32,502 nt of DNA. Source: Halostagnicola kamekurae. Lineage in GTDB: Archaea; Halobacteriota; Halobacteria; Halobacteriales; Natrialbaceae. The notes beneath the pieces were generated by a model. It made no database searches. It saw only the letters and a list, made by a program, of their open reading frames with translations, and was not told the origin of the DNA. Positions 1,871-24,544 of the stretch are shown piece after piece (within the stretch, counting starts at the first letter, position 1; every line of letters begins with the position of its first letter). Where the stretch lies: positions 1 to 32,502 of the forward strand of contig NZ_FOZS01000012.1 of assembly GCF_900116205.1 (NCBI RefSeq), in the 5' to 3' direction. The translations under genes and the position numbers were made by a program.

Positions 1871-2067
1871 AAGAAAACAGAAATATAGACGATCTAACTC
1901 TGCGTCTGACCTAAAGTGTACGACGATTTTCTTTCACTTCTCTCTCAAAAGCAGTGTCCGAGAACTACTGTAAAGTCGGACGAAACGAGCCTGATTTCAG
2001 TCTGAGTACCGCCGAAAAAGCTAGGTTCCTATCCGTTTTTGTCCGACATGCAGGCAAACCGGACACC

Positions 2068-2655: not shown

Positions 2656-2751
2656 CTCCACTGCCAAACTCTGGGTTGAAAAGATAGAGTTTAAAAATTC
2701 GATTCAAAGTAGCCTTCACAATTTTGTACCTCCCTTATAGTAGTAGTACTA

Positions 2752-3812: not shown

Positions 3813-4281
3813 AGGCATAATTGGTTTTAGTTGTATTCGGACAGCGACTGAGATTTCTCGGACGGTCGCCGAGAGCGGCGACTTTGATCTTGTCGAGGTA
3901 GTTGGTTCGCCTCAAGAGTTCTGATCAAACAATCGTCTACTGGCTACGGACACCTATTCCCGGATAACGAGATTAATGGCATCACTTGCGTCAAGAGTTT
4001 AACGCTATTCGTCCCTGCCGCAGAGGAGTGCGAAACTATTGATGTCCAATGGATCAAAGTGGTATTCTGTGATTTCAACAGGACTGAACGAGATATTTCA
4101 CGAAACTCACATCCCCTGCTAGATTCCCTGTTAGGGGTGTCCCTAAGGGAGACCTCATCAAAACACATTCCTACATCTGCGGGCAGAACCCCACGGGGGT
4201 GGACACCGATTCTATGCAGAAAGAAGCAGAGTTTGCTGGAAAACAGCCCATCTAGATAGTGTTGCCACTAGCGAGATCGTT
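3813..4281. other. Non-coding stretch with remnants and short hairpins
   Basis: No convincing gene is present. At about 3835-3924 a short plus-strand frame ends IRTATEISRTVAESGDFDLV and then EVVGSPQEF before TGA; it looks like the last 35 residues of a lost gene. At 4085-4205 there are small hairpins, including ACCCC-ACG-GGGGT near 4188-4201 and CCCCT paired with AGGGG around 4112-4137. These could be subterminal structures of a vanished insertion sequence. Neither idea is strong. Confidence 0.3.
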
Positions 4282-8796: not shown

Positions 8797-11700
8797 TTAA
8801 TACTTCTCGAAGGCCATCTGAGTAGCTTCCTCCTCAACACGACGACAGAGGCCCTCAATCGCTTCTGGTTCCAGTGATTCGATTCTGTCTATACGGTGTG
8901 CGAAATTCTTCATATAGTGTCCTTTCAACCCGACTACAATTGTACCGTGGTTTTTCGCGTCTTCTGTGCGTGCAGGCACTGACACGATATTATCGAACTG
9001 GTCATCGACGAGTTCCCGGTTGAAGACTACTCCAATACGGTCAGAACGAACGTTCTGAACCATATTATCGATGTCAATGCTGGTATAGTAATCTTTCCCG
9101 AGAGTGAAGAAGACTACATCGTAGTCTGATTGGTTGAGCACCTGCTCTAAGTCGTCCTGAATGCTGAGTTGTTTAGATCGTTCCCTGATGTCGGTAACGC
9201 CCATCGAACTGAACGTCACTTCGTAGGGTGGCAACGGTTCGTCCTCAGAAACGAGGCCGAAGCCTGCACTTATGAAGTACCGCCCAACATCGTGCCCTTC
9301 CCCTTTGAGTCGTCTAATCGCTTCTTTCACGAACTCCTGCTGTCGTCCCGTGTAGAGATCCTTGGCGTTGATTCCAGGAACATTATTTCGCTCTAATAGC
9401 TCTTCTCTCGAGAATTGGAGCGTCTCTTCATCATCGAAGACAGGTGCACCTTCCGGGAAGTTCTTCGAACCAGAGCATTGGTCGATTACCAAAATATCGA
9501 GCCCATCCTGGACATTGATTTTGGGAGGGTGAGGCAAGAAGTCGTCTCCAGCTATGTAATTCTCTCCGCACGCCTCCAAGGCACTCTGTCGTAGTTTCGA
9601 AGGGTCTTGGAACGTCTGAATTGTACAATCGTTTTGCTCCACGGCATCTACGACGTGCTCGTCGATTTCTCCGTCAGGTGTGTGGAGGAACACCTTCTGG
9701 TACCGCTTTGCTTGCTGACCAAGGTTTTCAGCCATGCGACTTCGGGCAAGCGAAACGCCGGAGGGAGTATCGCTCCACCACTCACGTACACCACTAGCAT
9801 CTAGAACGCCAACTTCAGCAACAGGGAGATCATGTACTTGCTGCCAGAAGTCCGGGTGTTTGGCTCGCAGGTAGTCCTCAACAGTTTCGTAACTGTTCAG
9901 AGATGCCGTTCCTCGAGTCCCGATGAGGATTTTCGGTAGTTCATCGGTAAACTCATCATAGAACCGTCGTGTGTTGTGGAACCCTCGTCGACGGTTGCGA
10001 TCGTTACCACGGAAGATACAGACCTCGATACTATTCTCGATACAGATCGAGCAATCGCACTTATCCCAAGGCCGGTTTTGCAGTGTTCGCTGGTACTCTT
10101 CCAAGAGGTCTTCGTCGCCGATCCACGTCGCATAATCGCGAACGGCAGTCCAAATCGCGTCGTAAGCAGTTTCAGGATCGTCGTTTTCCAGAATGGTAGT
10201 CATACGCGGGAAATCCTCGAACTCCCGTTGCACGAGGGTTAGTAGGTCAGCGTACTCATCAAAGTCAACTGGATCTTCGGGATTGTCCTTTTGAAGGAGT
10301 TTGACCAGTTTTTCCCACAGATTGTCCCTGAGCTTCGTCTGGAGTTCTCGGGTATACTCGAAGTCATCTCTGAAGGCTGTTTCAACCTCCTCAAGCAGAG
10401 CAGTTCCCTGAGACAGAGAAACATCATATTGCTCGTCGTGACGATGTTCACGGAGATACTTTTCGAGGGCCGTCGTTACTCTCGGGGAACGTCTGAATTG
10501 TTGTTCTGCGGTAGTTAGTAGATCATCGTATTCGTCGAAGCTAACCGGATCTTCTGGATCATCTTTCCGAAGAAGTTTGACCAGTTTTCCTCGAAGGTTG
10601 TCGCTGAAGCTCGCTTGGAGCTCTCGAGCGTACTCGAAGTCCTCTCTAAAAGCGGTTTCAACTTCTTGGAGTAGAGATGCGTCGTATTGCTCGTCGTGAC
10701 GGTGTTGACGCAAATATTCTTGAGTGGCCGGAAGGACTTCTTCTGCTTTCTTTTGCCACTCATAGAATGCGTCAACGATAGACTCCCCAGAATCGTAGGC
10801 TCTCAAGGCTGCTAACGTTTCGCGGCCGCGAAGGGACTTCTCTACGGCCTCTGCAAGAGAATCACGGTTAGATGGGTAACGCACTCGAATCGCGTCGTAT
10901 CGCTCGTCGTTGTCAAGCCGGTAATTCTGGCCTCCGGTCCATGCCGAACGGAGCATACTCGCACTATCGAAACTGGTCATCCCCGATCGACCGACCGTCT
11001 CGAATCCTTCACTCTTCGCAAACCCGAAAACGTGTGAGTCAATGCGAGTGTCGTTCTCGCGTTCAAACTCCTTTGCAGTCTTTCCGACGCCCTTCACGAT
11101 TTGCCTGACGTCGTGGATGGGGCTGCCAGCGACGCCACCGATACCGAGATAATCGTATCCAATGTCGAGAACTTCCTCCGCGGCCTCGATATACGTTTCC
11201 GGGTTCCAGCCCTGTATCGCTACCATTAGCCGGAACGGGTAGTTATCTTGATGGTACAGGTCGTACATCTCCTGAGCGTTCCGGAGAGTGAGCTTGTAGC
11301 GGAATGCTGCGTCATCCTCTCGGTACACAGCTCTGGGATCGCGAGCTAATCGCGCAAGTACCGTATCGACATCGCCTTGGAAGTCTTCTGGAGCAAAGGC
11401 CTCGACGTCCTCCTTCGATTGAGTACAGATTGACGGTTCGTACTCCTCAACATAAGTAGGCCATTCATGGGGCCACTCGTCGGCCATCAAATCGACGACA
11501 TCAGTCAATGCATCGGGGATGTCACCCTTTTTGAAGTCGGTGTGGAAAGCGCGTTCGTCGAGATACAGTCGGCCCTTGTCTTTCCCCGAACCCAAAACGA
11601 GGTGATCGATAGTAACGCCGACTGTGACTTCCAGTGTTTCGTAGAAGTCGAGCATCTCGGCGTTCCCGTATGGAGGGAACGGGAGTGACTTGTAGCCCCA

Positions 11701-11976
11701 CGCGCCGCAGTCGCTGATCGTCGGAAGCCATTCTGGAACGGACAACACCGGATCATCGTAGACCCCGTACTCGGCAAGACGATCTGCCTTGCGAGTCGTC
11801 TCTTCAACCTGCTCACGCGAAATTAGCACGCCATCAATTGGGGTTGTGTCGCGTTCGAAAATATCCCAGATGTAATCTAGATCTCGCTCCTGACGGTCGA
11901 GAGTAGAGAGTTCGTCGTGCCGGAAATCGTAGTGGGAATCAACCGCATCGTCCCACTCAGGAACGTAAAATCTCAC
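8797..11976 (-). CDS. dpdA: DpdA-like DNA 7-deazaguanine transglycosylase with YaaA-like C-terminal domain
   Basis: This 1059-aa protein (GTG start) is related to tRNA-guanine transglycosylases. TGT landmarks in order are: SDCGAWG (Asp89, matching the DSGGF box), LGIGGVAGSP (about 277-286), FGFAKSEGFETVG then MTSFDSAS (Asp337 in the place of the nucleophile), and a zinc site Cys640-x-Cys642-xx-Cys645 with His667. Between the nucleophile and the zinc site is a tandem repeat of about 85 residues (about 415-499 and 500-595), each with EYLR/KYLR-HRHDEQYD and LVKLL-KD-PEDPV. The C-terminal third (about 825-1010) is YaaA/DUF6884-like: VIDQCSGSKN, DLYTGRQQEF, FISAGFGLVSEDEPLPPYEV. Known DpdA proteins replace guanine in DNA by preQ0. 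The neighbours match dpdG to dpdK, which supports DNA rather than tRNA as substrate. An archaeosine TGT is the main alternative, but the gene is too divergent and sits in a defence island. Confidence 0.82.
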   Translation of the reverse strand: MRFYVPEWDDAVDSHYDFRHDELSTLDRQERDLDYIWDIFERDTTPIDGVLISREQVEETTRKADRLAEYGVYDDPVLSVPEWLPTISDCGAWGYKSLPFPPYGNAEMLDFYETLEVTVGVTIDHLVLGSGKDKGRLYLDERAFHTDFKKGDIPDALTDVVDLMADEWPHEWPTYVEEYEPSICTQSKEDVEAFAPEDFQGDVDTVLARLARDPRAVYREDDAAFRYKLTLRNAQEMYDLYHQDNYPFRLMVAIQGWNPETYIEAAEEVLDIGYDYLGIGGVAGSPIHDVRQIVKGVGKTAKEFERENDTRIDSHVFGFAKSEGFETVGRSGMTSFDSASMLRSAWTGGQNYRLDNDERYDAIRVRYPSNRDSLAEAVEKSLRGRETLAALRAYDSGESIVDAFYEWQKKAEEVLPATQEYLRQHRHDEQYDASLLQEVETAFREDFEYARELQASFSDNLRGKLVKLLRKDDPEDPVSFDEYDDLLTTAEQQFRRSPRVTTALEKYLREHRHDEQYDVSLSQGTALLEEVETAFRDDFEYTRELQTKLRDNLWEKLVKLLQKDNPEDPVDFDEYADLLTLVQREFEDFPRMTTILENDDPETAYDAIWTAVRDYATWIGDEDLLEEYQRTLQNRPWDKCDCSICIENSIEVCIFRGNDRNRRRGFHNTRRFYDEFTDELPKILIGTRGTASLNSYETVEDYLRAKHPDFWQQVHDLPVAEVGVLDASGVREWWSDTPSGVSLARSRMAENLGQQAKRYQKVFLHTPDGEIDEHVVDAVEQNDCTIQTFQDPSKLRQSALEACGENYIAGDDFLPHPPKINVQDGLDILVIDQCSGSKNFPEGAPVFDDEETLQFSREELLERNNVPGINAKDLYTGRQQEFVKEAIRRLKGEGHDVGRYFISAGFGLVSEDEPLPPYEVTFSSMGVTDIRERSKQLSIQDDLEQVLNQSDYDVVFFTLGKDYYTSIDIDNMVQNVRSDRIGVVFNRELVDDQFDNIVSVPARTEDAKNHGTIVVGLKGHYMKNFAHRIDRIESLEPEAIEGLCRRVEEEATQMAFEKY

Positions 11977-12178
11977 AGATTCTATTCACCGTCTTACGCT
12001 AAGTTGGTTCCTCCTTATGAATCTCCCCAATCCGGTCGAGATCCGCGCCGGGAAAAGCCTCGCCGTGTCTAGAGAAGGAAAATGTTGTTAGCTAGTTTCA
12101 CACGCAAAACACATCCGATTAACTGAAACCGTTGCAAACAAGTGATACGAAGAAATCGCATATCAGGTACTACAGGAA
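11977..12178. other. Gap between the CARF regulator gene and dpdA
   Basis: This 202-bp stretch contains no gene. On the minus strand TTCATAAGG near 12014-12022 is a weak TATA candidate for dpdA. The regulator gene upstream points the same way, so read-through into dpdA is also possible. Confidence 0.3.
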
Positions 12179-12829
12179 TTAGAAGACGTTAATATCGATA
12201 GCGAGACGTCCTTCTTCCGTAGAATATACCATCTTAGACTTACCATGTTTTTCGGCACGGACAAATCCTCGTTCTTCGAGCTCGCTAACGTGACGGGCGA
12301 CAGTGCTCTTCGCGACATCGAGTGTGTTCGAGATAAACGTCAGTGACGTCTCCTCATCAACGTCGACAATCGTCTCAAGGGTCTCAACAACGGAATCGCT
12401 TAAGGGGTCCACGAAGTTGGGGATCTGAATCTCTGAGACGGATCCGGTAATATCACTGAACTGGAGAACTGTATCGATAGCATCGCGTGAGAGAAAGGCG
12501 GAGAATGCGACGGGGAGATATATATCTCGTGCACCTCCACCAAGAACGAGGACGACGTCGTCGCTTTCGGATTCCACCCGATCGATGCTACGACGAATAC
12601 CCTCGTAGAAGTCTTCGGGATCGAGTGCGACCGAATCAACGGTGACATTTGGTTGTAGTTCGGTAACCATTCGACGTACGTCCTCACGTGCCTCGTTCGA
12701 CCGGTCATTTTCGCCGTCATCCGCTGGGTGTACCAGAGCGATTTCGTCGCCCTCTTCAAGTCCGTGGGTGAGTACTGGTCGCGTGACACGGGTACTGTCG
12801 AATCCGATCGTCGCGATGAAGGTAGTCAT
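12179..12829 (-). CDS. CARF-HTH transcription regulator (Csa3-like)
   Basis: This 216-aa protein pairs an N-terminal CARF (CRISPR-associated Rossmann) domain with a C-terminal winged helix. The CARF part begins MTTFIATIGFDSTRVTRPVL, the usual first strand and phosphate-loop helix, and includes the second nucleotide-facing loop LGGGARDIYLPVAF (about residues 100-113). The winged helix reads SNTLDVAKSTVARHVSELEE, then RGFVRAEKHGKSKMVYSTEE. This is the architecture of Csa3, which binds cyclic oligoadenylates in CRISPR-Cas loci. ATG 12829 was chosen over the frame opening at 12955 because the conserved CARF start follows it directly and a TATA box sits 28 bp upstream. No CRISPR array or cas gene is visible here. 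Its position between dpdA and the divergent operon suggests it controls one or both. Confidence 0.82.
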   Translation of the reverse strand: MTTFIATIGFDSTRVTRPVLTHGLEEGDEIALVHPADDGENDRSNEAREDVRRMVTELQPNVTVDSVALDPEDFYEGIRRSIDRVESESDDVVLVLGGGARDIYLPVAFSAFLSRDAIDTVLQFSDITGSVSEIQIPNFVDPLSDSVVETLETIVDVDEETSLTFISNTLDVAKSTVARHVSELEERGFVRAEKHGKSKMVYSTEEGRLAIDINVF

Positions 12830-12862: not shown

Positions 12863-13178
12863 GGTGCTGTTGCACGACAGTAGAACAGTACCATCTTGTT
12901 GTACCAATTTGCAATAGTTGATTAAGGCGTCAGGCCAGTTAAGACGAGGAATCACAAAGACTTTAGCTAGAAAAGCAATTTGGTTTCATAGATCTACAAT
13001 CCACTCAGTGAATACTGGTACACTGGAATAGATATCACTTTAACAGAAGTTCTAATGCGATGATACCCCCTCTCAAAAACACGAGTAAACCAAGCGAAGT
13101 TACCGCGGCCAGCGATTGACCGATGTACCGACATCAGAACATGGTTGCCACGACACATAGTGGAAACACTGTAATAGG
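12863..13178. promoter_or_regulatory. Divergent control region between the regulator and the dpd operon
   Basis: This 316-bp stretch lies between two divergent transcription units and must hold the operon promoter. CAGTG-N10-CACTG at 13006-13025 is an imperfect dyad that could bind a dimeric winged-helix protein. CACATAG near 13155-13161 is a weak TATA candidate 20-25 bp before ATG 13179. On the minus strand a short frame reads SLAAVTSLGLLVFLRGGIIA near 13050-13115, perhaps the tail of a lost membrane gene. Confidence 0.35.
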
Positions 13179-14042
13179 ATGACTACAGGACACTGGTATG
13201 AACGGTTCGACGACTCAGAACCGATTCAACTCGTCGATATAGTCCATACGAGAACGCCGACGATCGTCGTCAGGGACTCGCAGTTACAGAAGCGACGGAA
13301 ACAGGCGCGAGCACAACTTCGTTCTCTTCCGCTCTTTCAGTCGCTTGGGCTGAATCGAGTCGTTCATACTGATCTATGGGACAACGAGTATAGCCCGATT
13401 GATTACGAGCACATCTCGAGTGAAGACGCAGATCCTGAAGAGGTTGAGTTCCCCCTCGTGCACGTGGTTACGCAGGATGGTATCCTCGAATACGGCGAAG
13501 AGGACCTCGTTCGTCGACTTATAGAGCGTTCACTCGATGAGGGCGGACAATACGTCCTGATCACGGACACCACAGCACCACAGACACCGAACTACACAAA
13601 AAAGCCAGGTCGGTCTGTCGTGGATGACTTTCCAGCTATCGCAGTCCGCGATTACGCCTCGCTGGCGAACTCGTTCGGGGAGGATGTCCTTGGCGGACGA
13701 TCGCGGATCCCCGTGGTCGACACTCGGAACGTGTTCTTCCACGCCGCGTCAGCGATCCACGATGAGGCAGGCGCTCCGGCGGACAGCATCGAAGCGGTGT
13801 TCGACTACACTCAAGCACCGACCGATAGCCCGGTGTGGGATTCGGCCCGCTACTTCCTCGAACACGACCTCGACAACGTGCTCGAGGACTACGCAGACCA
13901 CATCCGTGAAGCCCTCCGCTCGTGGATGGAAAGGGGAGACACCCAGCGGGTCGCCAACCACATCCTAGAGGTGCTTCGGGTCTGCGACTACGATGCATCG
14001 ACTCTCGAAAATTATCGACAACGAGACGCCAAATATCGATGA
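13179..14042 (+). CDS. Unknown first gene of the dpd-like operon
   Basis: This 287-aa acidic soluble protein is not in a family I recognise, and it has no evident counterpart among the bacterial dpd genes I know. An N-terminal half with beta strands (EPIQLVDIVHTRTPTIVVRD, EFPLVHVVTQDGILEY) is followed by GGQYVLITDTTAPQT, which has a Rossmann-like strand and loop. The C-terminal half is helical (SARYFLEHDLDNVLEDYADH, IREALRSWMERGD). No nuclease or nucleotide-binding motif is certain. The start is ATG 13179. The stop overlaps the next ATG by ATGA, so it is translated with the downstream genes and is probably a dedicated part of the system. It could be a sensor or an assembly factor; this is speculation. 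Confidence 0.7.
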   Translation: MTTGHWYERFDDSEPIQLVDIVHTRTPTIVVRDSQLQKRRKQARAQLRSLPLFQSLGLNRVVHTDLWDNEYSPIDYEHISSEDADPEEVEFPLVHVVTQDGILEYGEEDLVRRLIERSLDEGGQYVLITDTTAPQTPNYTKKPGRSVVDDFPAIAVRDYASLANSFGEDVLGGRSRIPVVDTRNVFFHAASAIHDEAGAPADSIEAVFDYTQAPTDSPVWDSARYFLEHDLDNVLEDYADHIREALRSWMERGDTQRVANHILEVLRVCDYDASTLENYRQRDAKYR

Positions 14043-14929
14043 CTGCCACCTACAAGACGAACGACAACAAACCGAAGCAAGATCTCGTAAACTACTCGAC
14101 GGTTCGCGTCCCCGAATTACGGCTCATCTATCGTACCCTCGAGGCTGCTGGGGGCGAGTCAATAAACGTGTCCACGCTCAAGGACGCGATAGTACCGAGC
14201 GACGACAACGGCTCGAAGGACGCCGACCATCTCGGAAGGTGTCTTAAATTCCTTCGTGCGATCGATCTCCTCGAACGTCCGGAGGACCGCATGGTCTCAC
14301 TGCTCAATAAGGATGTCTATCCCAACCTTTCGTTCGAGCTTCGGTTACTCTACCACTTGAACCGTCAGGAACATCCACAGGATCACATTGTGGAGGCCCA
14401 GCGCGTTGCCTTCGAGTTTGCCTCGAAGACAGTCGAGCGTGAGCGTCTCATAACTGAATTCAATAACGAGGTGGAGCACATTAACTGGAATAAAACGAAA
14501 ATAAATGGCTGGTATCATCTCCTCGAAGGCATTGGCGTATTGTCGTACATCGATTCTCGAGAGTTGGTGCTGTCGCCGCGGCCAGCGCTGCTGTACGAAC
14601 TCCTCGAGACTTTCCGAGATGAGGAGAACTCGACCGACTTCGGCGCCGCGGTCGGCTGGATTGAGGACAAGTTCCTTAGCGTCCTCACGACCCGCCCTGG
14701 GACGCCGAGGCTCCATCAGGGTGTCACCGACACACTGCAAACCCTGATGGATGAGGACTACGTCGACGTGCGCGGAATGTCAGATGCGAATAACGAGGTC
14801 GTACTGCCTTCGACACACTCCCGAAACGAGGAACCAAACGTGACGAAGTTCGAATTGAACGACTGGCCGGAGGAACCGCCCGCAAGCAAACGCTATCTTC
14901 TCGATCGATTCACGGAGGTGGACGCATGA
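14039..14929 (+). CDS. dpdG: DpdG-like winged-helix protein
   Basis: This 296-aa protein starts at ATG 14039 inside an ATGA overlap; longer upstream frames are shadows of the preceding gene. It appears to hold two winged-helix-like modules: one near residues 20-90 (VRVPELRLIYRTLEAAGGES then LGRCLKFLRAIDLLERPEDR), the other around 155-200 (INGWYHLLEGIGVLSYIDSR then ELVLSPRPALLYELLE). The tail is acidic. In the Salmonella-type cluster dpdG comes directly before dpdH and has no known enzymatic motif. The same size and place are the main reason for this name. It could be the DNA-recognition partner of the ATPase encoded next. Confidence in a winged-helix protein is higher than in the gene symbol. 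Confidence 0.6.
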   Translation: MTATYKTNDNKPKQDLVNYSTVRVPELRLIYRTLEAAGGESINVSTLKDAIVPSDDNGSKDADHLGRCLKFLRAIDLLERPEDRMVSLLNKDVYPNLSFELRLLYHLNRQEHPQDHIVEAQRVAFEFASKTVERERLITEFNNEVEHINWNKTKINGWYHLLEGIGVLSYIDSRELVLSPRPALLYELLETFRDEENSTDFGAAVGWIEDKFLSVLTTRPGTPRLHQGVTDTLQTLMDEDYVDVRGMSDANNEVVLPSTHSRNEEPNVTKFELNDWPEEPPASKRYLLDRFTEVDA

Positions 14930-17900
14930 GCGAATATCCTATCGACTGGTCTGACGACACCGTTCGACAGTACCTGACTGCGGAGGCGCACCAGAAGTCC
15001 AAAGAAGAGTTCGAACGCACCCATATTGACATCGACAAGCTCAGGGCAGACTATCTCTTTCCCCATTCGACGAACGACGAGTTCGTCACACAGGAGGAGT
15101 TCCGCGATGCGATCCTGAAGTCGAACACCAAAGACGATAATCGAATATTCATCCTTCGCGGGGAGACCGGAAGCGGGAAGAGCCAGTTGTGTCAGTGGCT
15201 TGAGTACCAGATTGGGCACGATGCTACCACTGGAATTGACGATACGCACGTCGCCCTGCACGTCTCTCGGAGCGAAACACGCATCAAGGACATCGTCGAG
15301 ATCCTCACAGAACCGCTCGAGATGGATGTCAACGTCCGCGACGTCGGTGGGCTCGACCCCGAGAAGGTCGCAAACGCGATGCTTGCAAACCTCGAAGCAT
15401 ACAACCCGATGCTCGAGTCGTTCACAGAGGAGGAGATCCAGGCGCTCGTCGAGGATCGTCCCCAGAGCACCGATCTCCGAGGTATCCTCGAGGAGAACGT
15501 CCGCGAGTACCAGGAAGCGGTCCTCAGTGACGACGAGGAGGACATTCCGGAACTCATCACGGAGGATGACTACCGCGACCTCTCGATAGCGGCGTTTGGA
15601 ATGGCGGAAGGCGGCGACACTATCTTTCCGGCACTCCAGAGTTTCATCGACCAGGAACTGTCCAGCAAACTCGGCGTCGGCGATTTCCAGCAACGGCTCA
15701 AGGAGATCTCCGAGGAGTATGTCGCCCAGGGGCTCCGTCCGGTCTTGATTTGTGAAGACCTCACAACGTTCAGCGTACTTAAGGAGCAGTTGCTAGATCA
15801 CATCTTCCAACTCGACAGCGGACACTACGATGTGGTGCTCGGGTGGACGACTGGTTGGGAGAAGGACAACGTCGACACAGCACTGGGGACGAATGAGGAC
15901 GCCCAGACGTACATGAAAGACCGGGCAGAGGGGTACCTCAGCACGACTGACGACACCGGACAGGCGTACTTCCTCACGGACGATGTCACTGTCGAACTGA
16001 CGAAGCAGTACCTCTCGGTCATTCGTGAGGACTCGGCGGTAGCGGCTGACACCGAGATCCCAGAGGCGGACTTCGACGGGCTCTATCCGTTCAACGCGGA
16101 GCTCGTCAAACGTGCGTACGAAAACCTCATTCAGGACGGGAACGAGCGACGGACACCGCGACTCCTCCTCATGCGAATTGTCCGGGAGTGCTTGACATCG
16201 ACAAAACCACCCTTCGAAGCGATCGACGGGAACCCATACGTCAAGCAGTTCCCGACGCCCATATCGCTGGACTATCCCTCTGAAGTCCAGTCGATAGTGA
16301 AGTGGTATGGTATCCCGACCGCTGAGGGGAACATGCGGGTACCCCAAAGCGTGTTTGAACTTTTCGACATCCCCATTCCTGAACGGACGGGCCAAGTGAC
16401 TGAGACTGACGTGGTCTTTGACTCGGACATGGGGTCGACGCCGGACTTTCGACTTCGCCAGATCGACGGACAGATCGAACCCGGGGCAACAATCACGGTC
16501 GAAGCGCTACTGAACGACCGTCCGGAACCGGACGTCGAGGTGACTCTCGACGGATCCACCGTCGGCTACACCAGCGATGATGGGCGGCTGTCAGTGACGC
16601 TTCCTAACGAAGAAGGCGAGGTGGTGATCGGCGGTGAGAAAGCGAACTTGAACGATACACTTGATCTCGCAGTCGGGACGGACTCACTTGCGCTTGTCCC
16701 GACACCGTCCTCACCGAACGAAGGCGAGACGGTGCAACTCACTGCACGTGTCAACGGTGAACCGACCGCAGACGTCTCCGTCGAACGTGATGACGAAGTG
16801 CTCGGGACGACTGGGGAAGGCGGGACTATTGAACTCACTGCTGACGATCCCCCCTCTATGAGCCTTGCCGCCGAGTACGAAGAACTCGAAGACGAAATCA
16901 ACGTCCAGATTGCGGGGACCAAGATCTATCCGGTCGAGACTGATTACGGAAGTGAGACAGTCGACGAATACCGCTTCGACTACCAGCAATGGGTTTCGAA
17001 CGGTGAAGAGTACGCCAGTTCCACGATATTGCGGGACGGAACTGCCGAACTACTTGAGGAGTGGTACGATCCGACCCGCCTCGCCAACCCCAACTCATCG
17101 ACGCGAGGAACGAAAGGGATCTACTACACTCGCGGTAGTCAGATTCCTGTCTCACTACAGGGGGTTGACGAACGGACAGGCATCAGTATCGAACTCTCGT
17201 TTGGCTCTGAGTACGATCAAATCTACGAGCCGTTGTTCTGGCACGGGATCAGTGCTGACGGTGAACTCCCCTACGAGGACCGCTATGATCTCAACTACGG
17301 ACTACTTCGTAACTGGGCCGACGACTCCGTTGCCGAGTTCAAACAGGGGATGCGTGAGCGCATCGAGGACTGTTTCGAAGGCTGGACCATCGAGGAATTT
17401 GTCGTCGTGGCACAGTATCTCCTCATCAACGCAGAACGAGGAGAGACTGAACTGACACGTGACCTGATGTTCGAGTCCTACGGAATTTCGAATGATTACC
17501 CCCATCCATTCACGAAACGCTTCGATAGAAATAACTCCTTCTTCGAAGCTTTCCAAGGCCTGACCAATCAGAGCAGCCTTCCAACCGACCTCGCAAAAGG
17601 ATTCTTCAAGATCAAGGAGAACTTCGTGGACGCCAAGCGATTGAACGAGGCCTATGGGGCAGTTGCCAATGACCTCGAGACATACCTCGAGGAAGCGATG
17701 TTTATCGACAGCGACGGCCTTCCGGATGCGTATAAGGTTGGATCAACGCGTAAAAAGGCTACAACCAAGCTAGCATCTGTCCTTGAGTACGTAAGAGTCT
17801 ATGCACAGGAACTCAATGGACTCGGTCCGAACAACGTTGAGTACATCACCGATACTGTAGAGAAGATAGATACTTGGTACGACAAGAGCCACTCGCTCCA

Positions 17901-18291
17901 CCAACTCCAGGAACTGTATGACGAGTTGCTCGAAATCATTGGCGATCTCGATGTGAACATGCGTAACACGTGGGAAAAGCAGCGGAAGTGCCTCGAGAAA
18001 AAGGACCGATTCCACCTTGGTTCGTTTGCGAAGGATATCGAGCAGTTCCGAGAAGTTGAGTCCGCAAGCGGACACGAACTCATTGGACTGATGCACGAAT
18101 TTGAGGAAAGTCGGGAAACGGCCGCTGAGTGGAAAATCTACGAGGCTATCAGCGAGATGATCGAGATCGCGCAGAACGCCGATGTTCCTGAGATTGACAA
18201 CGAACGAGAGAGCGAAGTCAAGAATTCCGAGGAGTTCCGCGCTCTCATCGCGACGCACGACGAGATCGCCAACATCATCGGAGGTGAGTGA
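14926..18291 (+). CDS. dpdH: DpdH-like large ATPase with tandem Ig-like inserts
   Basis: This 1121-aa P-loop ATPase has Walker A GETGSGKS at residues 79-86 and a Walker B-like strand RPVLICEDLTTF near 270-281. The N-terminal 450 residues form the ATPase and its helical lid. Residues about 515-660 hold two beta-sandwich modules of Ig or carboxypeptidase-regulatory type (EPGATITVEALLNDRPEPDV and SPNEGETVQLTARVNGEPTA), a fold normally seen in secreted or surface proteins. No signal peptide or membrane segment is present. The C-terminal 450 residues are helical. The start overlaps the previous stop as ATGA. In bacterial dpd clusters DpdH is the large ATPase preceding dpdI and dpdJ; position and size agree. 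It probably powers or gates the restriction complex. Confidence 0.7.
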   Translation: MSEYPIDWSDDTVRQYLTAEAHQKSKEEFERTHIDIDKLRADYLFPHSTNDEFVTQEEFRDAILKSNTKDDNRIFILRGETGSGKSQLCQWLEYQIGHDATTGIDDTHVALHVSRSETRIKDIVEILTEPLEMDVNVRDVGGLDPEKVANAMLANLEAYNPMLESFTEEEIQALVEDRPQSTDLRGILEENVREYQEAVLSDDEEDIPELITEDDYRDLSIAAFGMAEGGDTIFPALQSFIDQELSSKLGVGDFQQRLKEISEEYVAQGLRPVLICEDLTTFSVLKEQLLDHIFQLDSGHYDVVLGWTTGWEKDNVDTALGTNEDAQTYMKDRAEGYLSTTDDTGQAYFLTDDVTVELTKQYLSVIREDSAVAADTEIPEADFDGLYPFNAELVKRAYENLIQDGNERRTPRLLLMRIVRECLTSTKPPFEAIDGNPYVKQFPTPISLDYPSEVQSIVKWYGIPTAEGNMRVPQSVFELFDIPIPERTGQVTETDVVFDSDMGSTPDFRLRQIDGQIEPGATITVEALLNDRPEPDVEVTLDGSTVGYTSDDGRLSVTLPNEEGEVVIGGEKANLNDTLDLAVGTDSLALVPTPSSPNEGETVQLTARVNGEPTADVSVERDDEVLGTTGEGGTIELTADDPPSMSLAAEYEELEDEINVQIAGTKIYPVETDYGSETVDEYRFDYQQWVSNGEEYASSTILRDGTAELLEEWYDPTRLANPNSSTRGTKGIYYTRGSQIPVSLQGVDERTGISIELSFGSEYDQIYEPLFWHGISADGELPYEDRYDLNYGLLRNWADDSVAEFKQGMRERIEDCFEGWTIEEFVVVAQYLLINAERGETELTRDLMFESYGISNDYPHPFTKRFDRNNSFFEAFQGLTNQSSLPTDLAKGFFKIKENFVDAKRLNEAYGAVANDLETYLEEAMFIDSDGLPDAYKVGSTRKKATTKLASVLEYVRVYAQELNGLGPNNVEYITDTVEKIDTWYDKSHSLHQLQELYDELLEIIGDLDVNMRNTWEKQRKCLEKKDRFHLGSFAKDIEQFREVESASGHELIGLMHEFEESRETAAEWKIYEAISEMIEIAQNADVPEIDNERESEVKNSEEFRALIATHDEIANIIGGE
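18279..18287 (+). promoter_or_regulatory. Shine-Dalgarno site deciding the dpdI start
   Basis: GGAGGTGAG lies at the very end of the dpdH frame and ends 6 nt before ATG 18294. This ideal spacing favours ATG 18294 over the overlapping GTG at 18288. Confidence 0.55.
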
Positions 18292-18293
18292 CA

Positions 18294-19037
18294 ATGTCAT
18301 CGAATATCGAAAAAACAGTCGAAACGCTACGGTCGAAGGCTGATAACTATCAGGATGCAACGAACTTTGAGGCTAAATTAGAGGAGAACACCGGGACTGC
18401 GTCGACGCTGAAGACATCTCTCGACGGACTTCGGAATCGAATGGAAGAGGTCGAACGACTGAACGACATCTACACGCGGGTCTTCGATCGTGACACGCCT
18501 GAAACGGTCAAAGACGCACGTCACCAGGCGCGTCAGGTCCTGGACCGGACCGCAGACGACTACTGGAAGTTGATCAACGAGGACCGAAGCGAACAGTACA
18601 CGGCCAAGGTCCAGACCGCAAAGTCAGAGGCCGACGATGCGCGAAACCTCCTCCGGACGGAATTGAACGAGATTCAGACCGCTTGGCGGGACGATATCCG
18701 GGCAGCACGGCGGATTCAGACGTTGATGCCTGACTCTCGGGAGTCGTCCCAGTTGCTCAACGACATTGAGGAGTTCGTCGACAACCGTATGTGGGACGAC
18801 TCCGCCGACATCAACTCACTGCAGGGAGAATGGCAGGGACTCGAGAAGAAGTGGGACGACGGTGTTGTAAGTTGGGACGAACTGCAGGACCGGTACGCTC
18901 TCAGCGACGCCACAATCGATCGCCTGAAACGGCTCGCACAGGGGGAGAAAGTGTCATTTAGTAAACTAGATGGTGGCGTCGTGGAGGAACTGATGAACGT
19001 CGACGAATTCCGCGACGTACTCGAGGTGACGCTGTAG
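18294..19037 (+). CDS. dpdI: DpdI-like coiled-coil protein
   Basis: This 247-aa, almost fully helical protein has long heptad-like stretches: TLKTSLDGLRNRMEEVERLN and then DARHQARQVLDRTADDYWKL, KVQTAKSEADDARNLLRTEL. A short globular C-terminal part (VSWDELQDRYALSDATIDRL, then SKLDGGVVEELMNVDEF) looks like a small helical bundle. There are no catalytic motifs. The name rests on its place between the DpdH-like ATPase and the DpdJ-like helicase and on its small size. It is likely a structural linker of the complex. The next gene starts two bases after the stop. Confidence 0.6.
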   Translation: MSSNIEKTVETLRSKADNYQDATNFEAKLEENTGTASTLKTSLDGLRNRMEEVERLNDIYTRVFDRDTPETVKDARHQARQVLDRTADDYWKLINEDRSEQYTAKVQTAKSEADDARNLLRTELNEIQTAWRDDIRAARRIQTLMPDSRESSQLLNDIEEFVDNRMWDDSADINSLQGEWQGLEKKWDDGVVSWDELQDRYALSDATIDRLKRLAQGEKVSFSKLDGGVVEELMNVDEFRDVLEVTL

Positions 19038-19039
19038 GA

Positions 19040-22000
19040 ATGGAGAATCCAACTCATCGCGCCACAGAGGCCGTTAGCGCTTACCGGAACCACTTCGTCG
19101 GCCGGACGGGCCCGGCTGCACGAAGCATTGCGAACCGTCAGGAGCGACTCCTCGAGGATCCCGACGGCCTGGTAAACGTTCGTGGGCCGTACCTCCAGGC
19201 GCTCGACGTGCCCAACTGGAGCGACGAGTCCTGGCGGTCGTTCGCTTCGCGAGTGGGACTGAATCCACTCATCAGGAAGACGTTCGACGATTTGGGGTTT
19301 CGGCGCCTGTACGACTTCCAAGAGCGGAGCATCGAATCGATCCGTGACGGCCACGACACCGTCGTCACGGCAGCCACAGGTCGAGGGAAGACTGAAGCAT
19401 GGCTAATCCCGATCCTTGATCGCATCTTAGAGAAGAAGCGTCGCGGCGATGGGGATGGCACAACCGCGACGCTAATCTATCCAACGAAGGCACTGGCGCA
19501 GGATCAGTTCAAGCGATTAGTCCAGTATCTCTACCGAATTAATGAGCAGTGGCCGACGAACCAGCAGATCACGATTGGGATCTATGACGGCGATACGCCA
19601 ACGAATATGAGCGCGAACGCCCAGGGGTATCTCGAGTCGTCATTCAAATACACCGAATGTCCCGGTGCGAATGAGGATCTCGAGAAGTGCCGAAACTGTC
19701 GTCAGGGCGTTCACGTCCACAACAGCGGGCAGTCTTACGAACTTCGCCCGGAGAAGCGTCAGTGCACGGATGACGTACCACTCGATTTTATCCGATTAAC
19801 CAAGCACTCGATCCTTACTGAGGGCGTCGACATCCTGCTGACGAACCCAGATACGATCAACATGAAGCTCGTGAACGTCAACGCACCTGACGAACACGAG
19901 ACCTTCGTGTACGATCCCGAGTTCCTCGTGTTCGACGAGGTACACACCTATGACGGGTTGTTCGGGAGCTATACCGCCACGCTAACCAAGCGAATGCGCG
20001 CCCTCCGCGAGGATCGCGGGTGCGACGACCTTCAGGTGATCGCCAGCAGTGCGACCGTAGAGAACGACGTCGAACTGTTCCAGCAGATCAGCGGCGCAAC
20101 GAAAGTAGAACACGTCGACGAGCAGTCTCGTTCCCTTGACGCACCATCGAAGGCAAGCATGCCGTCGGCGTTCACGGAGTCGACGCTTGCGGAGGAGGAT
20201 TTACTCTCGTTCGCACGCGGGAAGCGAACTCCACCGTTGCTGGCTGACATCGACTTCGACATCGACGCGCAAGCACACGATGACGACCGGTTACTCGAAC
20301 TTCTGGGCGACCACCTTTTCGACGCCATCGCCAACGAGGGCGCGGACACGTCGCCTGTCGTTGCCACTTTCCGAGTACTGCACGACGAACTCTCCTCTGA
20401 ACCCCAGACCTACGAGGAGTTTCTCAAGTGGATTGCAGGGGAGTTTGACTTGACCGAGACTGAGGCCGAACGGGTGCTGGATAATTTCACCATCCTCGGG
20501 ACGTTCTCCGGTCTCCTTGAGAACCGAACGCACCTCTTCTCGTGGCCAATTGACGGCTTCTACGCCTGTTCCGCCTGTGAGGCGGTGTACTCCGCGCCAC
20601 AGGAGACCTGTCGGAACTGTAGTAACGGTTTCGTCACTCGAAGCACGTACTGTAGCCGCTGCGACGACGAGGCGTTGGTCGCGTGGTTTTGTCCGTCGTG
20701 TGAGCAACTGGATCCCTACATCCCGATCGAGGAGGGTGAACGCCGTACCGACGAGGAACATCACTGTCAGCGCTGTCTGGCGGCCCGCGATGAGGAGGTA
20801 CGCTCGCTTCGGGTTACCTTTCAACCGACACTCGAGTGTGAGTCCTGCAGGGAACGGACGACGCGGTCGACGAGGGGATCCTGCTCCGAGTGTGCGACCA
20901 ATCTCGTCCATGTCGGACCGGACCAGTACCGATGTCCAAATCCCGGTTGCGAGTCGAGCGTCGAGTATGACCCCGGCTGTCCCGACTGCGGCGGAGACCA
21001 GCGACCGGTCACGGGCGACGGTCCCGTCGACTGTCCCGGCTGTGGGCAATCGCATGAAGGGGCCGTGCCGGCAACCTGCGATTGCGGACGATCTCTGACA
21101 CAGACGCGGTTACTCCCCTGGGTGTGTCGGAAAGACTCCTGCGACCGAGAGTACTTCGGTGATCCACCTGACACCTGCCCTTGCGGGTCATACACGTTTG
21201 CACGCGCGGGACTGTTCGAAGTACTCGCCGACTCGTACTGTGAGTCCTGCGAAACCAGCACCGTGGGAGATCCGACCTGTGACTGCGACGGGCCTGTCAG
21301 GACGCGAGAGACACCCTTCCAGGCCTATCAGACGGTTCAGCCAGACGGAGGCGTGCGAGCGGCGAGTTCGTTCTCGAGTGTTGCGCCCTGCACGCACCAG
21401 GGGCTGAACTACAACACGGATCGCCGGTACGACGAACTCGTTCGAGGGCCGGGGAACCTCGCGGTGACGACCAGCCAGTATCTTCTCCGACGAGTCGCCG
21501 ACGAAGAGGGGCACAAAGCGGCCAAACTCCTCTCGTTTGCGGACTCCCACCGCGACATGAAGGAAGTCAACCGTGACTTCTCAGAGCCCGAAGCGGCGAC
21601 GCTGATGGACCAGACGTTGGTCGAGGTCACTCGTCGGCACGAACCATGGATCGACGCTGAGACCGTCCTTGACGGCGCGATGGAACTGATCGAAGACCTC
21701 GGCAACGACCTGAAACCGCCTCAGGACGTTCGCGGGGTAGCCTTCGATATTGCCGAGGAACTCGTCGATGCCTCAAGACGGCACATGGACACCGAGGAGG
21801 CGGTCCGGGATCGACTCCGGCGCCGGCTGTATCCCCACAGCTATAGCGGTCGGTACGGGGAGTTCGGAGGTGCCCTCGCTGACGACGGACTAGTCGATGT
21901 CCGCCTTGATCCGGTCGTTCGCACGGAACTCTCTGCCGAGGAGCAAGGGATTGTGCAGGAACTCGTCAAGAACGGCTCTGGATGTTCGATCGAAAAGATC

Positions 22001-24544
22001 GATCCACCGGCCACGTCAACGGACGTTCGTGCCATCGTGGACGACCTCGATGATCGGCACGTGCTCGAGGCGGACGACGACTACGTCGAGTTCGATCCGA
22101 GTGCACTAGAGGCGACGCTCGCGGGTGACAGCGATGACTTGTATTACAGGCCGTCGAACGGCAGCTACGAGCAGACCATCGACGCGCAGTTCGGTGGACG
22201 AAGCGGTGACGCCGTCCCCTCGAGTGTATCAATCGATGCACTGGCAGACTCGGAGCACCCCCGGTTCACCGCTCGCGCGTACCGGACGACATACTCGCAG
22301 CCCCGCATGCTCGTTGGACAGGTCTACCACGGGATGACCGAGAAGAAGGAACGGCGCGAACTCGAGTACCTCTTCCGCGAAGGGAACCAGCCCCACTTTC
22401 TCTCGACAGGGCCAACGATGGAACTCGGCGTCGATATTGGCGACCTCGACGCGCTATTGCTGTACGGCACGCCGCCGAATATGAACGCATATCTGCAGCG
22501 AATCGGTCGCGCCGGACGAGACTCCGGATCCTCGCTCGTGCATTCGGTCAGCCAGCGCAACCCCATCGACTACTACTACTACGAGCAACCAGCGGACCTG
22601 ATGGCCGCTGATCCGCAACCGGTCCCGCTCAAGGAGTACAATGAGGAGGTGCTCCGAGTCTCGCTGACGTGGGGCGTACTCGATTACGTCGCCGCGAACT
22701 TCGTCGTCCCGTGGGAGGTTGAGCGGCGCGGCCAATACGCATCGGTCAGTGGCGGTGGCGAATTCGAGCATCGTCAGCCCTCGTCCGACGACGATGCCGC
22801 AAAACTGACCCATGCGATGTCGGCACGGACGAAGGAACTCGGGCTACAGTCTCGGAACTCGAAGCTAGCCGCGCTAGGGACGGTGGTCCACGACTATGAC
22901 CGAGAGATCCGAGAGCATCTCGAGCGACTGTTGGATCACCAGTACTGTGCCGAGTGCAACCGCAAGTACGACCGCGACGCCGACCGCGAGACCTGCGTCG
23001 ACGATAACTGCTCGGGCGACCTCCACGACGCGCTGTCGGAGTTCGAGCACTTGATCGACGAGGCAGTCGAGCGGTTCGACGAGCGGTTCATTGACCATTA
23101 CGGTGAGTACCGTCACGAACTCGAGGACGAACTCGAGAACGTCCAGCGCCGCTGGAGGGACCTCAAACGTGATCGTCGCCGGGCGAGTTCCGGCGAGGAG
23201 GCACGACGCATATCGGAGGAGCGTGCCACGCTCGCCGACCGGAAAGAAGCGCTCAGACGACGACTGGACCAGATCGAACGCATGTCATATCTCGACTTTC
23301 TGCGCGAGTCGCGCCAGAGTCGCTACGCGTTCAACATGCGGAGCGTGACGAATAACGTTGGTGTCGGCCTCGTCGACGCGGATGAGGACGGCTACTGGAC
23401 CCGTAGCATCGGCGAAGACGACGGGCGGTCGATGCGGATGGCGATCAGCGAACTTCACCCTGGATCAGCGTACCTCGACGGCGGCGACGCATACGTGGTC
23501 TCCCAACTCTCGACCGACGAGTTCGCGTCGTCAGAACTTCGCGAGCGCGTTCGACGCAGCCAGGCGAGTGGACTGGCTGAGGAGTACGTTTGCCCTGCCT
23601 GCGGAGAGAGTCATGAGGATCCTGGGGATGCCTGCAACTGCGGCAGCGACGTGGACCTCCAGCGGCGTCGGTTAGTCGTCCCCGAGTCGGTGCGGGCCCA
23701 CCGGTCTGATCTCCTGATGTCGGCAGACGGCAATCCTGCACGGACAATGTATCGGGAGCAGTCAAACGAGATCCAGAACACCTACGCCGAGCGGAAGACT
23801 GAGGTCCTCGAGTTCAACTCGGCCAAATGCTTCGATCTAACGGGCGAAGACGGCGAGCAACTGGGCACTGTCGAGTACGGAAGCATCGACGTATTACTCC
23901 ACACGGATAGCTTCCGTGCGAAGTACAAGTCTGGCGAAATGGACGGCGAGACGACACCGTTCATGCTTTGTGGCGACGATGACTGCCCCGGGGTCGTCTA
24001 TCGGGACGAGGATGACCAGTTGCACTGCAGCGCGAACGCAGACCACGGCCCTGCACACGACACTGGCTACGAACTGGTCCGACTCGGCTACGAGTACCAG
24101 ACTGACGGGATTCGCGTCGATCTGGATGACACTGCCGAGGCGCACACGTTAGTTCATGGGTTCCGAGTTGCACTCCAGTATCTCGGTGGTGTAAGCATCC
24201 GCGAACTCTCGGAGGTCGTCCACGGTGACGGCGTCGTTGACCTGTTCGACGCCCAGGAGGGCGGTGCCGGGGTGACCGGGCTGTTGTTCGAGAGCGGCGA
24301 CGGACGGGAGAATTTCGAGCAGGCAATTTCCCTTCTTCGCGAGCACTTCCAGTGTGACTGTGACGACGGCTGCCCCCTGTGCCTCTACCAGTACGGTTGC
24401 GACACACACAACCGGGGGAGTTCCTTCGATCGCGAGGGGTTATTCGAACGCCTCGATCAGGCTTCAACGGCTGTATTAGCAACTGACGGCGGCACAGGTA
24501 TTGTGCGAACTAAACCGAACGAAGACATCCAAACTGACACATGA
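19040..24544 (+). CDS. dpdJ: DpdJ-like zinc-rich DUF1998 helicase, first copy
   Basis: This 1834-aa superfamily 2 helicase has a Q-motif Gln in YDFQERSIES (94), Walker A ATGRGKT (112-118), YPTKALAQDQ (147-156), a DEVH box (299-302), and SSATV (336-340). A cysteine-rich region of about 250 residues (about 508-760) follows, built of many CxxC pairs such as CSACEAVY, CRNCSNG, CSRCDD and CPSCEQ. The second RecA domain has LSTGPTMELGVDIGDLDALL and QRIGRAGRD (about 1152-1160). The C-terminal DUF1998 domain has TLVHGFRVALQYLGG (from about 1702) and the four-cysteine signature CDCDDGCPLCLYQYGC (about 1772-1787), as in MrfA and DISARM DrmB. Helicases of this type probably translocate along DNA to find or deliver a target. 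The downstream gene is a full paralogue. The stop overlaps it as ATGA. Confidence 0.78.
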   Translation: MENPTHRATEAVSAYRNHFVGRTGPAARSIANRQERLLEDPDGLVNVRGPYLQALDVPNWSDESWRSFASRVGLNPLIRKTFDDLGFRRLYDFQERSIESIRDGHDTVVTAATGRGKTEAWLIPILDRILEKKRRGDGDGTTATLIYPTKALAQDQFKRLVQYLYRINEQWPTNQQITIGIYDGDTPTNMSANAQGYLESSFKYTECPGANEDLEKCRNCRQGVHVHNSGQSYELRPEKRQCTDDVPLDFIRLTKHSILTEGVDILLTNPDTINMKLVNVNAPDEHETFVYDPEFLVFDEVHTYDGLFGSYTATLTKRMRALREDRGCDDLQVIASSATVENDVELFQQISGATKVEHVDEQSRSLDAPSKASMPSAFTESTLAEEDLLSFARGKRTPPLLADIDFDIDAQAHDDDRLLELLGDHLFDAIANEGADTSPVVATFRVLHDELSSEPQTYEEFLKWIAGEFDLTETEAERVLDNFTILGTFSGLLENRTHLFSWPIDGFYACSACEAVYSAPQETCRNCSNGFVTRSTYCSRCDDEALVAWFCPSCEQLDPYIPIEEGERRTDEEHHCQRCLAARDEEVRSLRVTFQPTLECESCRERTTRSTRGSCSECATNLVHVGPDQYRCPNPGCESSVEYDPGCPDCGGDQRPVTGDGPVDCPGCGQSHEGAVPATCDCGRSLTQTRLLPWVCRKDSCDREYFGDPPDTCPCGSYTFARAGLFEVLADSYCESCETSTVGDPTCDCDGPVRTRETPFQAYQTVQPDGGVRAASSFSSVAPCTHQGLNYNTDRRYDELVRGPGNLAVTTSQYLLRRVADEEGHKAAKLLSFADSHRDMKEVNRDFSEPEAATLMDQTLVEVTRRHEPWIDAETVLDGAMELIEDLGNDLKPPQDVRGVAFDIAEELVDASRRHMDTEEAVRDRLRRRLYPHSYSGRYGEFGGALADDGLVDVRLDPVVRTELSAEEQGIVQELVKNGSGCSIEKIDPPATSTDVRAIVDDLDDRHVLEADDDYVEFDPSALEATLAGDSDDLYYRPSNGSYEQTIDAQFGGRSGDAVPSSVSIDALADSEHPRFTARAYRTTYSQPRMLVGQVYHGMTEKKERRELEYLFREGNQPHFLSTGPTMELGVDIGDLDALLLYGTPPNMNAYLQRIGRAGRDSGSSLVHSVSQRNPIDYYYYEQPADLMAADPQPVPLKEYNEEVLRVSLTWGVLDYVAANFVVPWEVERRGQYASVSGGGEFEHRQPSSDDDAAKLTHAMSARTKELGLQSRNSKLAALGTVVHDYDREIREHLERLLDHQYCAECNRKYDRDADRETCVDDNCSGDLHDALSEFEHLIDEAVERFDERFIDHYGEYRHELEDELENVQRRWRDLKRDRRRASSGEEARRISEERATLADRKEALRRRLDQIERMSYLDFLRESRQSRYAFNMRSVTNNVGVGLVDADEDGYWTRSIGEDDGRSMRMAISELHPGSAYLDGGDAYVVSQLSTDEFASSELRERVRRSQASGLAEEYVCPACGESHEDPGDACNCGSDVDLQRRRLVVPESVRAHRSDLLMSADGNPARTMYREQSNEIQNTYAERKTEVLEFNSAKCFDLTGEDGEQLGTVEYGSIDVLLHTDSFRAKYKSGEMDGETTPFMLCGDDDCPGVVYRDEDDQLHCSANADHGPAHDTGYELVRLGYEYQTDGIRVDLDDTAEAHTLVHGFRVALQYLGGVSIRELSEVVHGDGVVDLFDAQEGGAGVTGLLFESGDGRENFEQAISLLREHFQCDCDDGCPLCLYQYGCDTHNRGSSFDREGLFERLDQASTAVLATDGGTGIVRTKPNEDIQTDT

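What the first reader, a model, noticed from the sequence alone, without database searches (positions are those of the whole stretch)
12179..12829. CARF-HTH (Csa3-like) regulator embedded in a DNA-modification defence locus without CRISPR
CARF domains sense cyclic oligonucleotides made during a CRISPR type III or CBASS response. Here one sits upstream of the modification gene and divergent from the restriction operon, with its own strong TATA box. It would let a signal from another defence system switch this one on, or keep restriction off until DNA is modified.
Basis: partly seen in the sequence, partly recalled or inferred. Interest (0 to 1): 0.78.

Follow-up and report, generated by a model that had tools for sequence, protein, structure and literature searches.

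The report
CARF switch gene beside haloarchaeal restriction operon
In salt-loving archaea the same family of nucleotide-sensing gene switch sits head-to-head with two quite different antiviral systems, CRISPR type I-B and a DNA-modification/restriction system, although almost none of these genomes carries the Cas10 enzyme thought to make its signal, so what the switch senses is an open and testable question.

Summary
Window 12179-12829(-) encodes a 216-aa CARF plus winged-helix protein of the Csa3 family (NCBIfam, Pfam and PADLOC models; AlphaFold pLDDT 91; best PDB matches are Sulfolobus Csa3). Its neighbours match BRIGADE (Bell et al. 2025), a Dpd/ARMADA hybrid reported only from halophilic archaea.

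CARF travels with the effector operon, not with DpdA. It stands divergently at the operon's head in 27 of 35 loci found in 391 Halobacteria genomes. Other relatives stand in the same divergent place beside type I-B cas operons (37 of 66 loci examined). A palindrome, ACYGTTGC-N8-GCAACRGT, lies just upstream of CARF's own promoter in most BRIGADE loci and, weaker, in many I-B loci; its N8 spacing and position resemble Sulfolobus CAPPa.

The proposed Cas10 signal is not supported: the Cas10 palm domain was found in only 2 of 391 genomes, never in this one or another with the operon. Only 10 of 35 carry Cas1 and about 5 a CD-NTase, though this genome has one.

Best reading: a locus-specific, self-regulating, probably ligand-gated switch for the restriction operon. 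Direct control of that operon, its sign and the ligand are inferred. In eight loci CARF is absent; two of these have a TFB gene there instead.

The parts
12179..12829 (-). CARF + winged-helix regulator, Csa3 family, 216 aa
12854..12863 (-). TATA-like element of the CARF promoter (GTTTTATATG), 25-34 nt before the ATG
   Evidence: sequence
12866..12889 (.). Putative operator 1: dyad GCTGTTGC-ACGACAGT-AGAACAGT, 13/16 to consensus ACYGTTGC-N8-GCAACRGT, immediately upstream of the CARF TATA/BRE
12895..12918 (.). Weaker second dyad (12/16), conserved in the 92-93% relatives
12128..12135 (-). Perfect half-site GCAACGGT between CARF and DpdA; kept in G292, not exact in G386; suggestive only
8797..11976 (-). 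DpdA (TGT-like DNA base transglycosylase) fused to a DUF6884/DpdC-like C-terminal domain, 1059 aa
   Evidence: NF041059 271 bits (cutoff 200), PF21818 30.2 bits
13179..14042 (+). First effector-operon gene, 287 aa, family unknown
   Evidence: conserved in 35 genomes; no family match; model pLDDT 64, no fold match
14039..14929 (+). Second effector-operon gene, 296 aa, family unknown
14926..18291 (+). DpdH-like NTPase, 1121 aa
   Evidence: NF041065 73.7 bits (cutoff 450), AAA_22
18294..19037 (+). 247-aa coiled-coil protein, in the place of DpdI (position only)
19040..24544 (+). YprA/DruE-like helicase 1, 1834 aa
   Evidence: PADLOC DruE 3.6e-39, DpdJ 2.7e-35
24541..30030 (+). YprA/DruE-like helicase 2, 1829 aa, 37% identical to helicase 1
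30023..31996 (+). PLD-family nuclease, 657 aa
   Evidence: PF13091 30.8 bits, DrmC-like

Best explanation
The gene is the dedicated transcriptional regulator of a BRIGADE-type modification/restriction locus. It belongs to a haloarchaeal branch of the Csa3 family that is shared with type I-B CRISPR loci. The likely mechanism is this. A CARF dimer binds a palindrome (ACYGTTGC-N8-GCAACRGT) next to its own BRE/TATA and so controls its own transcription, and from the shared intergenic region also the divergent operon (two YprA/DruE-like helicases, a DpdH-like NTPase and a PLD nuclease). A phosphate-bearing nucleotide bound in the CARF dimer pocket changes this activity, so that costly effectors are raised during infection or stress. 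Shown here: family, fold, conserved divergent position, conserved dyad, and absence of the Cas10 palm domain from genomes with the operon. Inferred: DNA binding, control of the operon (no dyad was found at the effector promoter itself), ligand gating, and sign of regulation. The ligand is unknown; it is not a Cas10 product in these genomes.
For: Family and fold. Divergent position at the head of the same operon in 27 of 35 loci, with CARFs as low as about 35% identical to this one. Other relatives stand divergently beside cas6-cas8-cas7(-cas5) operons in 37 of 66 loci; the BRIGADE CARFs cluster on one side of a branch, though with weak support (37/85). Dyad near CARF's start: mean 13.6/16 against 8.8 (sd 0.2) in dinucleotide shuffles, none of 200 as high; consensus-free palindrome test z=9.5 at spacer 8. 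Spacing and place match CAPPa (TCCCN8GGGA upstream of BRE/TATA) in Sulfolobales (PMC8699464). Pocket residues G9, F/Y10, D11, GGG(A/V)R101 and D126 invariant or nearly so in all 27 BRIGADE CARFs. Cas10 palm2 in 2/391 genomes, none with the operon.
Against: No expression or binding data. No dyad match above shuffles beyond 180 nt from CARF, so none at the effector TATA. Eight of 35 operons lack CARF, so it is not essential to the system. F14 of Csa3Sso, which stacks on cA4 adenines (PMC8844856), is Arg in all 27 BRIGADE CARFs, so cA4 itself may not fit. S. solfataricus Csa3a bound DNA non-specifically and independently of cA4 in vitro (PMC8699464), so ligand gating cannot be taken for granted. 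The consensus was drawn from the same loci on which it was scored, and these are related by descent.
Confidence: 0.66

Rival explanations
1. Cross-talk: the CARF senses cyclic oligonucleotides made by another defence system in the cell (type III CRISPR or CBASS).
For: Csa3Sso binds cA4 (PMC8844856, PMC8699464); the cA4 motif 2 (small-small-G-x-R) is kept; this genome has a CD-NTase on contig C6.
Against: Cas10 palm2 in 2/391 genomes and in none with the operon. SMODS over the cutoff in only 5 of 35 genomes with the operon. The CD-NTase here has its own neighbouring CARF-like regulator (HFX_2341_N, 74 bits). F14 is Arg.
Confidence: 0.13
2. Timing device: like the C protein of a restriction-modification system, it delays or balances restriction relative to modification and needs no ligand.
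For: An operator next to its own promoter and a divergent effector operon. In this locus it is co-directional with and upstream of DpdA, with a half-site between them.
Against: CARF is tied to the effector operon, while DpdA's place varies from adjacent to about 28 kb away. The same regulator type serves CRISPR loci, which need no such timing. The ligand pocket is invariant.
Confidence: 0.15
3. Passenger: a relic of a displaced type I-B CRISPR locus without a role in the BRIGADE system.
For: Close kinship with type I-B CARFs; 8 of 35 operons lack it.
Against: Kept in 27 of 35 loci across many genera with invariant pocket and DNA-contact residues and a conserved dyad; no cas remnants beside it in the window.
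Confidence: 0.05

Closest known systems
Csa3a (Sso1445) of Saccharolobus solfataricus, type I-A CRISPR regulator
   Same: CARF + wHTH order, fold (TM about 0.76), G9, F10, D/N11, G96 and R98 of the cA4 pocket; N8-spaced palindrome just upstream of BRE/TATA (CAPPa, PMC8699464)
   Different: About 20% identity; F14 is Arg; E122, which weakens cA4 binding, is Ser/Gly; half-site sequence differs; stands by a restriction operon; no Cas10 in the genome
Csa3-type CARF regulators of haloarchaeal type I-B CRISPR loci
   Same: About 29-40% identical, same divergent position, related but weaker dyad upstream of the CARF gene
   Different: Divergent partner is cas6-cas8-cas7 instead of the BRIGADE operon; pocket more variable (positions 10, 11, 14, 97, 100)
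BRIGADE systems (Bell et al. 2025, PMC12458937)
   Same: DpdA-type modification gene, two DruE/ARMADA-like YprA helicases, PLD nuclease, halophilic archaea
   Different: A CARF regulator is not mentioned in that paper's main text (the word occurs only in the reference list; its supplements could not be read)
Canonical Dpd (7-deazapurine in DNA) systems
   Same: DpdA, DpdH-like NTPase, YprA-family helicase, PLD nuclease in a similar order
   Different: DpdH and DpdJ equivalogue cutoffs not met; two DruE-like helicases instead of one DpdJ; CARF regulator
HFX_2341 (DUF6293) of Haloferax mediterranei (PMC11434293)
   Same: CARF-like + wHTH haloarchaeal regulator in a host without Cas10; ligand also unknown
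   Different: A separate family (PF19810 hit here is 23.6 bits, below its cutoff of 30); vertically inherited global regulator, not in a defence locus

Membership tests
Csa3 (CARF-wHTH transcription factors) | N-terminal CARF Rossmann domain and C-terminal winged HTH of Csa3 type | tested here: met
   TIGR01884 79.5 bits over residues 4-205 (cutoff 60.2); Foldseek top hits all Csa3
Csa3 (CARF-wHTH transcription factors) | cA4 binding motif 2 (small-small-G-hydrophobic-R) | tested here: met
   GGGAR at 97-101; 27/27 BRIGADE CARFs keep G99 and R101
Csa3 (CARF-wHTH transcription factors) | cA4 binding motif 1 (hydrophobic-G-F-N/D-x-polar-F) | tested here: not met
   IGFDSTR: all but the last residue; F14 is Arg in 27/27. 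This motif concerns ligand type, not family membership
Csa3 (CARF-wHTH transcription factors) | Location in a CRISPR-cas locus | tested here: not met
   No cas gene recognised in the window; 37 relatives do lie by cas operons. Location is an association, not part of the family model
cOA signalling with type III CRISPR | Cas10 with palm/cyclase domain in the genome | tested here: not met
   PF22335 absent from this genome and from all others with the operon; controls ring
BRIGADE type II | Two YprA helicases, both ARMADA-like | tested here: met
   Both score highest with DruE models, above DpdJ; no YprA tree was built here
BRIGADE type II | The two YprA helicases nearly identical | tested here: not met
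   37% identity; the wording may refer to architecture, so filed as BRIGADE-like, nearest type II
BRIGADE type II | 7-deazaguanine cluster and PLD or PD-(D/E)xK nuclease | tested here: met
   DpdA 271 bits (cutoff 200), PLDc_2; preQ0 genes are not in this window but lie in some relatives, e.g. G257
BRIGADE type II | BrxA-like insert after RecA1 | not tested
Canonical Dpd | DpdH and DpdJ equivalogues | tested here: not met
   DpdH 73.7 of 450 bits, DpdJ 110.7 of 800 bits

The most novel reading that the evidence does not exclude
Haloarchaeal Csa3-type CARFs sense a ligand that is not a Cas10 cyclic oligoadenylate: for example c-di-AMP, a 7-deazaguanine nucleotide, or a product of the BRIGADE machinery or of viral attack. 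One such regulator type then serves both adaptive (type I-B CRISPR) and modification/restriction immunity through the same kind of operator.
Probability: 0.3. Interest if true: 0.85.

Novelty: new variant of a known kind. Interest (0 to 1): 0.56.

Why it matters
CARF regulators are usually read as receivers of Cas10 signals. Here one regulator family occupies the same divergent place beside two unrelated defence systems in a class of archaea where Cas10 is almost absent. That makes the nature of the CARF ligand outside type III CRISPR directly testable in culturable species (Haloferax gibbonsii, Haloarcula vallismortis) and gives a first regulatory handle on BRIGADE systems.

Tried and rejected
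Type III cOA cross-talk: rejected for this genome by the Cas10 search. CARF as partner of DpdA: rejected, because the position of DpdA relative to CARF varies. Identity of the 287-aa and 296-aa first operon genes: no convincing Pfam, NCBIfam or PADLOC match; the low-confidence model of the 287-aa protein gave no usable fold match. A second operator at the effector TATA: not found beyond 180 nt from CARF. Other operators in the genome: 24 one-mismatch matches against 14 in the reversed-pattern control, none followed up except the one at the CARF promoter. Searches failed on wrong ORF starts, since corrected. (PF06250) was a placeholder used only to learn that the genome is held. The 2020 CARF classification paper is not held.

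Full report
What is there. The minus-strand ORF 12829-12179 encodes 216 aa. Three libraries agree on a Csa3-type protein: NCBIfam TIGR01884 at 79.5 bits (cutoff 60.2), Pfam Csa3_N at 53.1 bits (cutoff 27) plus a C-terminal winged helix, and a PADLOC CARF3 model at 6e-62 over its whole length. By single sequence the PDB shows only HTH and chance matches. A 28-sequence profile finds Csa3 at 5e-9, and the AlphaFold2 model (pLDDT 90.9) finds Csa3 structures 2wte, 6wxq and 6w11 first (TM 0.72-0.77).

Neighbourhood. Downstream of CARF on the same strand lies DpdA fused to a DUF6884/DpdC-like domain (8797-11976). In the other direction runs an operon of seven genes: two of unknown family, a DpdH-like NTPase, a coiled-coil protein, two YprA/DruE-like helicases (37% identical to each other) and a PLD nuclease. 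The equivalogue cutoffs for DpdH and DpdJ are not met, so this is not a canonical Dpd system. It fits BRIGADE (Bell et al. 2025, PMC12458937), described as a Dpd/ARMADA hybrid found only in halophilic archaea, nearest to type II. In that paper's main text the word CARF occurs only in references; its supplements could not be read.

Conservation. P0001 has relatives in 65 of 391 Halobacteria genomes, DpdA in 56 by my count of TGT-domain hits, and both in 31 against 9 expected (Fisher p=2e-13). Gene maps show why. CARF stands divergently at the head of the same seven-gene operon in 27 of the 35 genomes that have its first gene. DpdA lies anywhere from next to CARF (this genome, G292, G386) to about 28 kb away. 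CARF therefore belongs with the effector operon. Named examples include Natronomonas sp. CBA1123, Halorubrum distributum, Haloferax gibbonsii and Haloarcula vallismortis.

The other relatives. Of 66 CARF loci examined, 37 stand divergently beside cas6-cas8-cas7(-cas5) operons, several with translated CRISPR repeats visible alongside; two have neither partner. I call these type I-B from gene content and general knowledge of haloarchaeal CRISPR; no subtype caller was run. In a maximum-likelihood tree the BRIGADE CARFs lie on one side of one branch, but with weak support (37/85), so one or two recruitments are both possible.

Loci without CARF. Eight operons lack it (G010, G030, G120, G222, G233, G257, G273, G304). 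In G030 and G233 a TFB gene (TFIIB repeat, 65 and 54 bits) stands upstream instead; in G257 preQ0 genes (by sequence resemblance); in G010 and G273 a UvrD-like helicase (by sequence resemblance). CARF is thus a common but replaceable controller.

Putative operator. A dyad, consensus ACYGTTGC-N8-GCAACRGT, lies 29-60 nt upstream of the CARF start (here 12866-12889), directly upstream of or overlapping the BRE next to the TATA box. In 21 chosen BRIGADE loci (near-copies left out) the mean best match is 13.6 of 16 against 8.8 (sd 0.2) in dinucleotide shuffles. A palindrome test that does not use the consensus gives z=9.5 at spacer 8, the highest of 16 spacers tried; even spacers share a centre and are not independent. 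G251, G263 and G173 match poorly. Type I-B loci show a weaker form (mean 11.1 against 9.0). The consensus was built from the loci it was scored on, and they are kin, so the fixed position and the consensus-free test carry more weight. In Sulfolobales the Csa3a-associated palindrome CAPPa is TCCCN8GGGA, also just upstream of BRE/TATA (PMC8699464). A second dyad occurs further upstream in the 17-locus clade, but none near the effector TATA. Direct control of the effector operon is therefore inferred from position.

Ligand. Csa3Sso binds cA4 through motif 1 (hydrophobic-G-F-N/D-x-polar-F) and motif 2 (small-small-G-x-R) (PMC8844856). BRIGADE CARFs keep motif 2 in all 27 and motif 1 nearly so except F14, which is Arg in all 27; E122, which weakens cA4 binding, is Ser or Gly. 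The pocket thus looks fit for a phosphate-bearing ligand, but not necessarily cA4. The Cas10 palm2 family was found in 2 of 391 genomes, neither with the operon, while five control genomes ring. Cas1 is present in 10 of 35 genomes with the operon, and SMODS CD-NTases over the cutoff in 5 of 35, this genome among them. No single known second-messenger enzyme tested fits all. c-di-AMP, which PMC11434293 raises as a candidate for the related regulator HFX_2341, is a general candidate not tested here.

Verdict. The proposed type III signal is not supported. The regulator is of a known family in a setting I did not find described; its ligand is the open question.

Noticed in passing
genome contig C6 55839-60783 (L194 5839-10783): Mre11-like ORF, then a 1160-aa Rad50-like ORF whose C-terminus (1041-1112) matches the last part of Cas1 (71 bits), then a Cas2-like ORF and a CRISPR array: a fusion, a deletion remnant or an assembly chimera.
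   Followed up: partly
genome contig C6 577-3740 (L192): A CD-NTase (SMODS, 71 bits) beside a 308-aa protein with a weak TGT-like match and a divergent HFX_2341-like CARF regulator; possibly an undescribed CBASS-like cassette.
   Followed up: partly
L142 5974-6972 (G030) and L146 8842-9801 (G233): TFB (TFIIB-repeat) genes stand where CARF usually stands at the head of the same operon, suggesting a dedicated general transcription factor as alternative control.
   Followed up: partly
genome contig C13 9906-19091 (L193): This genome has its own cas operon (cas6, cas1 and Cas3-, Cas4- and Cas2-like ORFs) without a divergent CARF of this family; the upstream 363-aa ORF has no Pfam match.
   Followed up: partly
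window 1-480 and contig C6 start: The same transposase sequence lies at the ends of both contigs, so the assembly is broken at an insertion sequence and the true left neighbour of the window is unknown.
   Followed up: no
window 13144-13167: Dyad GTTGCCAC-N8-GTGGAAAC just before the first operon gene, partly kept in G292, G386 and G251; could be a leader hairpin or another site.
   Followed up: no
window 6412-7833: 473-aa protein resembling the large subunit of exonuclease VII with a hydrophobic, membrane-like C-terminus (read from sequence only).
   Followed up: no
window 1954-5916: Integrase-like ORF, an Mrr-like endonuclease just under the Pfam cutoff, and a DUF7845 protein: probably further mobile or defence genes.
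   Followed up: no
L209: A contig labelled as a Spirochaetaceae MAG carries haloarchaeal-type cas genes and CARF; probably misbinned.
   Followed up: no
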